Assembly: GCA_003223295.1 (NCBI GenBank)
Contig: QHYM01000100.1
Span: 1-64,000, forward strand
From: Acidobacteriota bacterium
GTDB lineage: Bacteria > Acidobacteriota > Terriglobia > Acidiferrales > UBA7541
Length of the DNA stretch: 64,000 bases
Direction: 5' to 3'
Positions 27,870 through 28,436 of this stretch are shown in pieces. The notes below the pieces were generated by a model. That model worked only from the letters and a program-made list of their open reading frames with translations, was not told the origin of the DNA and made no database searches. How positions within the stretch are numbered: position 1 is the stretch's first letter; every line of letters begins with the position of its first letter. Both the position numbers and the translations under genes were made by a program.

Positions 27870-28436
27870 ATGACCTGGATCAAAACGGTCCGGATGGACG
27901 AAGACGAGCGCGTCAAGAAAGCTATTGAAGCGGAACGAAAATTATATCCGCCGGAGTACAGGACACCGGTCCCCGCTGTGGACCACGGCGAAGCGGATAG
28001 CATTACCGCGTCGCACTCACTGATTCCGGACGCGCTGTACCACTCATTTTCGGCGTTTGGCGCGATGATGGGGCCGGATTTGCCGCTCACGCGCCGCCAG
28101 CAGGAAATGATCACCACGTTGGTGTCGGTGACCAACCGCTGCCACTATTGAATCGAATCGCACGCAGAGTTTCTGCGCCGGGTCACGCTGGATGACAAAT
28201 TCGTGGAGGCGCTGCGCAGAGATTTCCGCACCGCGCCGATTAGCGAACAGGACCGCGCGATGCTGGAACACGTGGTCAAGCTGACGAAAGACGCCACAAG
28301 GTGTACCCGCGCCGACATTGAGAAGCTGCGTGAGGTGGGCTTCGACGACCGGGGGATTTTGCAAATTACGCTGATCGCTGCGTGGTTCAATTACATCAAC
28401 AAAGTGGCAGACGCGCTCGGCGTGGGCCGCGACTGA
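27870..28436 (+). CDS. AhpD-like (carboxymuconolactone decarboxylase family) selenoprotein; Sec at in-frame TGA 28149-28151
   Basis: Two frames in the same phase, 27870-28151 and 28152-28436, form one 188-residue AhpD/CMD-family peroxidase-related protein if the TGA is read through. The join falls in the active site: the sequence around it is NRCHY, then TGA, then IESHAEF. The family motif is CxxCxxxH, so the TGA replaces the second catalytic Cys (CxxU). Downstream homology continues intact to LIAAWFNYINKVADALGV, the typical C-terminus. A hairpin CGCAGA-GTT-TCTGCG (28163-28177) has its loop G 17 bases after the TGA, as expected for a bacterial SECIS. Predicted function: thiol/selenol peroxidase or reductase. 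It sits between the multihaem cytochrome and a CRTAC1 gene. Alternatives are a recent nonsense mutation or a base-call error (TGC or TGT to TGA). Confidence 0.85.
28152..28180 (+). promoter_or_regulatory. SECIS-like hairpin after the selenocysteine codon
   Basis: Immediately 3' of TGA 28149-28151. A perfect 6-bp stem, CGCAGA (28163-28168) with TCTGCG (28172-28177), closes a GTT triloop with G in the first loop position. The distance from TGA to loop is 17 bases. These features match the known bacterial requirements for SelB recruitment; no experimental support. Confidence 0.65.

What the first reader, a model, noticed from the sequence alone, without database searches (positions are those of the whole stretch)
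27870..28436. AhpD-like selenoprotein hidden as two split ORFs
The sequence shows an in-frame TGA at 28149 exactly where the second Cys of the AhpD/CMD-family CxxCxxxH active site belongs (NRCHY-TGA-IESHAEF). Full downstream homology in the same phase, and a hairpin with a G-first loop 17 bases after the TGA, add support. AhpD-like selenoproteins with CxxU are known in bacteria. The placement between a five-haem cytochrome and a CRTAC1 protein suggests a redox module not usually linked with selenium. Standard gene callers would report two truncated genes.
Basis: partly seen in the sequence, partly recalled or inferred. Interest (0 to 1): 0.85.

Follow-up and report, generated by a model that had tools for sequence, protein, structure and literature searches.

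The report
Hidden AhpD-like selenoprotein in Acidobacteria
A gene of an Acidobacteria species that standard gene finding splits in two is predicted to make one selenium-containing enzyme of a known peroxide-handling family: its in-frame stop codon is kept in every close relative found, and the RNA hairpin behind it in most relatives examined.

Summary
Gene 27870-28436 has an in-frame TGA at 28149 in NRCHY-U-IESH. The genome has tRNA-Sec, selA, selB and a selD with its own in-frame TGA. All 30 close orthologues found in 36 genomes of the genus carry one TGA. Of 121 loci read at this codon, 111 have TGA and 10 Cys. Of 69 degenerate codons with an invariant residue in 30 related genes, five use a single codon: residues 98-101, which carry the hairpin's first arm and loop, and residue 93 before the TGA. 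Hairpin bases covary. In a phylum sample selB is found in 69 of 73 TGA carriers and 184 of 321 non-carriers; the one genome with a Cys orthologue shows neither selB nor tRNA-Sec.

It is a new member of a known kind: AhpD-like selenoproteins are in print since 2005. Not met in my searches: its spread in Acidobacteriota and its place in a kinase-regulator-CRTAC1-cytochrome gene block. That block was not found outside the genus, so joint function with the cytochrome is unproven. Selenium insertion and activity are untested.

The parts
27870..28436 (+). AhpD-like selenoprotein gene, 188 residues, Sec at 94 (predicted)
28149..28151 (+). In-frame TGA, predicted Sec codon (residue 94, CxxU)
28163..28177 (+). 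Predicted bacterial SECIS hairpin CGCAGA-GUU-UCUGCG; loop 28169-28171, 17 nt after the TGA
24933..27833 (+). Upstream neighbour: five CXXCH motifs, Cytochrome_C554 and TPR domains, 966 aa
   Evidence: directly upstream in 24 of 29 genus loci
28446..30170 (+). Downstream neighbour: FG-GAP / UnbV_ASPIC (CRTAC1-like) protein, 574 aa, starts 9 nt after the selenoprotein stop
   Evidence: directly downstream in 24 of 29 genus loci
23000..24685 (+). Second FG-GAP / UnbV_ASPIC (CRTAC1-like) protein, 561 aa
22046..22759 (+). Response regulator (receiver + LuxR-type helix-turn-helix); the true start is probably downstream of 22046
20797..22140 (+). Sensor histidine kinase (HisKA_3, HATPase_c)

Best explanation
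The gene at 27870-28436 is predicted to be read through its UGA at 28149 with selenocysteine inserted at residue 94, giving a 188-residue AhpD-like enzyme of the TIGR01926 group that likely reduces hydroperoxides or a similar small oxidant with a Cys91/Sec94 pair. Steps: SelB with tRNA-Sec is expected to bind the hairpin 17 nt behind the UGA and insert Sec (inferred from the genome's machinery and the conserved hairpin). Sec94 stands where AhpD has the second cysteine of CxxC, with Glu79, Cys91 and His98 at the AhpD spacing E-x11-C-x2-U-x3-H (seen in the sequence). Sec94 would attack the oxidant, Cys91 would resolve the oxidised selenium as a selenenylsulfide, and a cellular thiol donor, not identified here, would reset the pair (inferred; the attacking role of the second cysteine in AhpD is recalled). 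In its genus the gene probably shares a transcription unit with the cytochrome (36 nt gap) and a CRTAC1-like gene (9 nt gap), next to a two-component system; a joint pathway is possible but not shown.
For: Machinery: tRNA-Sec over cut-off, selB 350 bits against 242, selA 571 against 268, selD 349 against 125 with its own in-frame TGA in AGUAAK. Conservation: one TGA in all 30 close orthologues found in 36 genus genomes and in two genomes of another family; codon 94 is TGA in 111 of 121 loci read; C91 is kept in 111 of 111 TGA loci. Hairpin: 685 of 756 pair cells form against at most 441 when slid, and 27 of 70 in the ten Cys-type loci; for the five core pairs 510 of 540 against a shuffle mean of 476 and maximum of 498. 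Among the 97 TGA loci with the main hairpin position, Ala or Gly at 99 and CTG or CTC for Leu102: Ala-CTG 66, Ala-CTC 4, Gly-CTC 27, Gly-CTG 0. Only five single-codon sites among 69. selB in 69 of 73 TGA carriers against 184 of 321 non-carriers. Family: TIGR01926 106 bits against 81.8, CMD 42.6 against 23. Model pLDDT 93.3, best PDB matches 6k40, 3c1l, 2pfx, 2prr, 2oyo at TM about 0.8.
Against: No protein or selenium measurement. The hairpin is not unusually stable. It is not universal: of 111 TGA loci 92 have all five core pairs, 8 have four of five, 9 have a different hairpin further on, 2 have neither; pair 17-27 is not a standard pair in 14 of 108 distinct sequences, pair 20-24 in 19 of 108. 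Four TGA genomes of the phylum sample lacked selB over cut-off; three of them have tRNA-Sec, one (G323, 72% complete) shows neither. Two genus members lack selB over cut-off but have tRNA-Sec. Six of 36 genus genomes lack a close orthologue. 184 non-carriers also have selB, so the machinery alone says little. No activity test of this subgroup was seen.
Confidence: 0.9

Rival explanations
1. The TGA is a true stop, a sequencing error or a pseudogene mutation, and the gene makes only a 93-residue fragment or nothing.
For: Standard calling gives two ORFs; the hairpin energy is ordinary.
Against: TGA at the same codon in 111 of 121 loci read; purifying selection after it; Sec machinery in the genome.
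Confidence: 0.01
2. UGA is read as tryptophan or another residue, as W at this site in many database proteins would suggest.
For: W in 74 of the 120 listed homologues (of 819 found); 72 of the 74 have source jgi.
Against: Both flanking genes end in TGA. W is followed by Ile in 73 of 74, as in the genus' TGA genes, whereas Cys is followed by Ser or Thr in 42 of 44, so W is probably the gene caller's reading of TGA. tRNA-Sec is present, and 44 of the 120 homologues have Cys there. The DNA behind the W rows was not seen.
Confidence: 0.02
3. It is a selenoprotein, but the Cys/Sec pair serves another reaction than peroxide reduction, for instance thiol-disulfide exchange or reductive dehalogenation like Bmp8, which shares the fold.
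For: Bmp8 debrominase structures 6ohi/6ohj match the model at TM 0.76-0.77; PA0269, a relative, has only a weak ability to reduce H2O2 (PMC3141380, passages); an amino-acid permease is the next gene upstream in 12 of 33 loci, not a known peroxide gene.
Against: The sequence is closest to the peroxidase-related group (TIGR01926); Bmp8 is at 12-14% identity.
Confidence: 0.3
4. The selenoprotein works directly with the multihaem cytochrome and CRTAC1-like proteins as one redox module under the neighbouring two-component system.
For: All six genes lie together in 21 of 29 fetched genus loci; cytochrome and second CRTAC1-like gene adjoin it in 24 of 29; gaps of 36 and 9 nt. Beyond the genus, matches to the CRTAC1-like proteins lie within about 5 kb in 5 of 33 loci with wide flanks (L101 at 58% on the opposite strand; L110, L121, L123, L127 at 23-35%), and a TPR/FG-GAP protein follows directly in 3 (L121, L123, L127).
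Against: G004, G032 and G006 keep the selenoprotein behind the first CRTAC1-like gene without the cytochrome or the second one. The six-gene block is in none of the 93 loci L088-L180 except the contig fragment L090 of the genus; cytochrome matches appear elsewhere in only 3 (L103 and L135 at 27-29%, L146 at 49% on the opposite strand; 51 of the 93 had only about 2 kb of flank). No obvious signal peptide in the selenoprotein (by eye), whereas multihaem cytochromes are normally exported (recalled).
Confidence: 0.25

Closest known systems
AhpD-like selenoprotein, COG2128 / TIGR01926, CxxU (Sargasso Sea and GOS surveys; 2026 review table)
   Same: Same HMM family over its cut-off, same CxxU motif, bacterial SECIS just behind the UGA
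   Different: Two of the three sources are marine surveys; here it is a large Acidobacteriota group with its own gene neighbourhoods. The first 52 residues of the window protein lie outside the TIGR01926 match
Peroxidase-related proteins 6k40, 3c1l, 2pfx, 2oyo, 2prr (solved structures)
   Same: Same fold (TM about 0.8), 24-28% identity over the chain; Cys at the Sec position in 3c1l and 2pfx (alignments seen)
   Different: Cys in place of Sec; titles call most of them uncharacterised
Mycobacterium tuberculosis AhpD (TIGR00777)
   Same: Active-site pattern Glu-x11-Cys-x2-Cys/Sec-x3-His
   Different: TIGR00777 score 20.2 against cut-off 191.95; fold match weak (TM about 0.5); Cys, not Sec
NF041238 alkylhydroperoxidase-related (seleno)protein and NF053654 YciW-related (seleno)protein
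   Same: AhpD-related families that include selenoproteins, by their model names
   Different: Scores 49.1 against 175 and 29.8 against 310

Membership tests
AhpD-like (TIGR01926) CxxU selenoprotein | TIGR01926 score above curated cut-off | tested here: met
   106.3 against 81.8 bits; six TGA relatives score 106-172 bits
AhpD-like (TIGR01926) CxxU selenoprotein | In-frame UGA at the second Cys of CxxC, with Cys homologues at that site | tested here: met
AhpD-like (TIGR01926) CxxU selenoprotein | Bacterial SECIS hairpin just downstream with G in a small apical loop | tested here: met
   criterion as in PMC1088965 (passages)
AhpD-like (TIGR01926) CxxU selenoprotein | Sec machinery (selA, selB, selD, tRNA-Sec) in the genome | tested here: met
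AhpD-like (TIGR01926) CxxU selenoprotein | Selenium in the purified protein; peroxide reduction | not testable with these tools
   needs expression, 75Se or mass spectrometry, enzyme assay
AhpD proper (TIGR00777) | Score above curated cut-off | tested here: not met
   20.2 against 191.95 bits
NF041238 / NF053654 named selenoprotein families | Score above curated cut-off | tested here: not met
   49.1 against 175; 29.8 against 310

The most novel reading that the evidence does not exclude
A selenoenzyme spread across Acidobacteriota, largely invisible because databases hold it as tryptophan-bearing or split genes, has become the selenium-dependent arm of a two-component-controlled cytochrome/CRTAC1 redox pathway in one Acidobacteria genus.
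Probability: 0.25. Interest if true: 0.65.

Novelty: new member of a known kind. Interest (0 to 1): 0.42.

Why it matters
Acidobacteria are thinly covered in the selenoprotein surveys of which I saw passages (4 selenoproteins in the 2006 survey; one genome in a 2025 method paper), yet here they keep TGA in this enzyme with strong selection on both the codon and the hairpin. The Cys orthologue in a genome without detected Sec machinery is a natural test of why Sec is kept. The public record seems to hide such genes: 74 of the 120 listed protein hits carry W at the active site, probably TGA read as Trp. The conserved gene block offers a handle on the unknown role of CRTAC1-like proteins and multihaem cytochromes in these bacteria.

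Tried and rejected
Pseudogene, sequencing error and genetic-code change were weighed and rejected. A cytochrome link kept beyond the genus was looked for and found in at most 3 loci by weak or opposite-strand matches. Folding energy was uninformative. A scan of the window for other read-through genes kept 12 of 77 candidates after an overlap filter; by eye only 28149 looked like a selenoprotein, and the others were not searched further. The one genome-contig scan returned six loci, all MAGs titled Acidobacteria or Acidobacteriaceae, three labelled gp2; no call named the window's own species, and its soil origin is only suggested by such titles. The tree is a quick one with 147 of 167 rows (20 genus rows dropped; two database rows with L or S not counted); it needs at least 8 Sec/Cys changes, 4 forced by well-supported branches, and cannot tell gain from loss. 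The Fisher tests treat related sequences as independent and overstate significance. Of the 73 TGA carriers in the phylum sample, 7 (G061, G063, G089, G091, G210, G287, G296) were judged by the tool's count of one TGA alone; the codon itself was read in the other 66.

Literature: 8 of 10 searches used; only passages were read, in PMC1794560, PMC2398784, PMC13188914, PMC3141380, PMC1088965 and PMC12013277. No paper on this Acidobacteriota group or its cytochrome/CRTAC1 context appeared in those listings; subscription papers are mostly not held.

Full report
What is there. The frame opening at ATG 27870 has TGA as codon 94 (28149-28151) and runs on to TGA 28434. Ordinary ORF calling gives 93 aa and 77 aa pieces. 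Read through, it is one 188-residue protein matching Pfam CMD (42.6 bits, cut-off 23) and NCBIfam TIGR01926 peroxidase-related enzyme (106.3 bits, cut-off 81.8). The site reads C91-H-Y-U94-I-E-S-H98, with Glu79 twelve residues before Cys91, the spacing of Glu118, Cys130, Cys133 and His137 in M. tuberculosis AhpD (PMC3141380, passages).

Sec machinery. The window's genome (95.2% complete) has tRNA-Sec, selB, selA and selD over their cut-offs. selD has an in-frame TGA in AGUAAK. tRNA-Sec appears twice, either side of an N run with the same flanks, so it is probably one gene duplicated in scaffolding.

Conservation. Of 61 genomes searched, 51 have some match at E 1e-3 or better. Of the 36 of the window's genus, 30 have a close match (E 1.1e-49 or better), each with one TGA; 6 have none that close. 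Two genomes of another family have it at 65-66% identity, also with TGA. selB is over cut-off in 28 of the 30; the other two, G006 and G021, have tRNA-Sec. In an even sample of 396 genomes of the phylum, 75 match at 1e-20 or better; the matches carry TGA except in G073 (no stop, Cys) and G374 (a piece after the site) (the codon was read in 66 of the 73 TGA genomes). selB is over cut-off in 69 of the 73 against 184 of the 321 non-carriers (254 of 396, less the 70 matched genomes that have it; odds ratio 12.8). G073 has no selB match at 1e-60 and no tRNA-Sec match at 1e-8. Of the four TGA genomes without selB over cut-off (G138, G299, G323, G334), all but G323 have tRNA-Sec over cut-off.

I fetched 120 loci and with the window read 121: codon 94 is TGA in 111, TGC in 8, TGT in 2. 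Most Cys loci were chosen because the search showed no stop, so 111 to 10 is not a frequency. C91 is present in 111 of 111 TGA loci and in 2 of 10 Cys loci.

Hairpin. The core stem is CGCAG/CUGCG closed by A-U over a GUU loop, loop G 17 nt after the TGA. Over 108 distinct TGA sequences 685 of 756 pair cells form, against 441 at the best slid register; in the ten Cys loci 27 of 70 form; the five core pairs form in 510 of 540 cells against a shuffle maximum of 498 in 1000. Pair 17-27 is C-G in 65, G-C in 28, G-U in 1 and unpaired in 14; pair 20-24 is A-U in 81, C-G in 7, G-U in 1 and unpaired in 19. Base 27 is the third base of Leu102, and it follows the residue at 99: Ala99-CTG 66, Ala99-CTC 4, Gly99-CTC 27, Gly99-CTG 0 (97 of the 102 TGA loci left after setting aside nine with the other hairpin; the remaining 5 have other residues or codons). 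Those nine loci have a different hairpin, such as GACCUC-CGGGCC-GAGGUC, its loop 24 nt after the TGA; two loci have neither. In 30 related genes (28 of the genus, 2 of another family) 69 degenerate codons have an invariant residue; only Tyr93, His98, Ala99, Glu100 and Phe101 use a single codon. In the wider set of 111 the codon before TGA is TAT in 67 and TAC in 44, so that part is not general. dN/dS is 0.13 before and 0.095 after the TGA. The free energy alone is not unusual (z -0.23).

Public record. The search found 819 proteins and listed 120. Of these 74 have W at this site, 44 C, 1 L, 1 S. W is followed by Ile in 73 of 74, as in the genus' TGA genes; C is followed by Ser or Thr in 42 of 44. 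I infer that most W rows are TGA translated as Trp; no W row was near-identical to a TGA locus (best 89%) and their DNA was not seen.

Structure. An AlphaFold2 model with Cys at 94 has mean pLDDT 93.3. Its best PDB matches are 6k40, 3c1l, 2pfx, 2prr and 2oyo, TM about 0.8; the debrominase Bmp8 is at TM 0.76-0.77; M. tuberculosis AhpD is weak.

Neighbourhood. In the window the order is histidine kinase, response regulator, CRTAC1-like, five-haem cytochrome with TPR, selenoprotein, CRTAC1-like. Of 29 fetched genus loci, 24 have the cytochrome directly before and 24 the CRTAC1-like gene directly after; 21 have all six; some misses are contig ends. In G004, G032 and G006 the selenoprotein follows the first CRTAC1-like gene without cytochrome or second CRTAC1-like gene. 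In 33 other loci (31 outside the genus, and two genus loci without the block) the nearest upstream ORF on the same strand belongs to one amino-acid-permease cluster in 12, a large outer-membrane protein cluster lies upstream in 12, and genes of the amidohydrolase and aromatic amino acid lyase families follow in 5 (Pfam was run on one or two members of each cluster). CRTAC1-like matches lie within about 5 kb in 5 of these 33, which could be a trace of a wider link or chance, since such genes are repeated in these genomes (two in the window alone). The neighbourhood varies by lineage and is weak evidence for function.

What is known. AhpD-like selenoproteins under COG2128 were reported from the Sargasso Sea in 2005 (27 sequences; PMC1088965, passages) and as CxxU in GOS data in 2008 (PMC2398784, passages); a 2026 review lists an AhpD-like CxxU selenoprotein under TIGR01926 (PMC13188914, passages). 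So the kind is known and this is a new member. The Acidobacteriota spread, the second hairpin and the gene block were not met in my searches.

Shown and inferred. Shown: the open frame, codon conservation, hairpin covariation, machinery, family and neighbours. Inferred: Sec insertion itself, the Cys91/Sec94 reaction cycle, the substrate, the reductant, co-transcription, and any joint work with the cytochrome.

Noticed in passing
L001 1497-1595 and 1756-1854 (G000:C465): tRNA-Sec appears twice either side of a run of N with identical flanks, probably a scaffolding duplicate of one gene.
   Followed up: partly
L100, L127, L173-L178: Eight of ten Cys-type relatives have lost the first cysteine of the motif (SxxC, DxxC, TxxC, NxxC), while all 111 TGA loci keep it.
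   Followed up: partly
L096, L144, L154, L156, L161, L165, L168, L171, L172: A second hairpin type, such as GACCUC-CGGGCC-GAGGUC, follows the same TGA at a different distance.
   Followed up: partly
L120, L122, L125, L126, L129: Outside the genus the gene can be followed by amidohydrolase and aromatic amino acid lyase family genes, like a histidine-use cluster (that naming is recalled), in three of these behind an amino-acid permease.
   Followed up: partly
G060:C258:16302-18998: In G060 the selenoprotein gene lies convergent with selB, about 250 nt apart.
   Followed up: no
L133 (G334): A 97% complete genome with the TGA gene and tRNA-Sec but no selB match at 1e-60.
   Followed up: partly
window 33933-35006; L173, L177: A radical SAM gene 62-63% identical to the one in the window lies just before Cys-type relatives in L173 and L177.
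   Followed up: no
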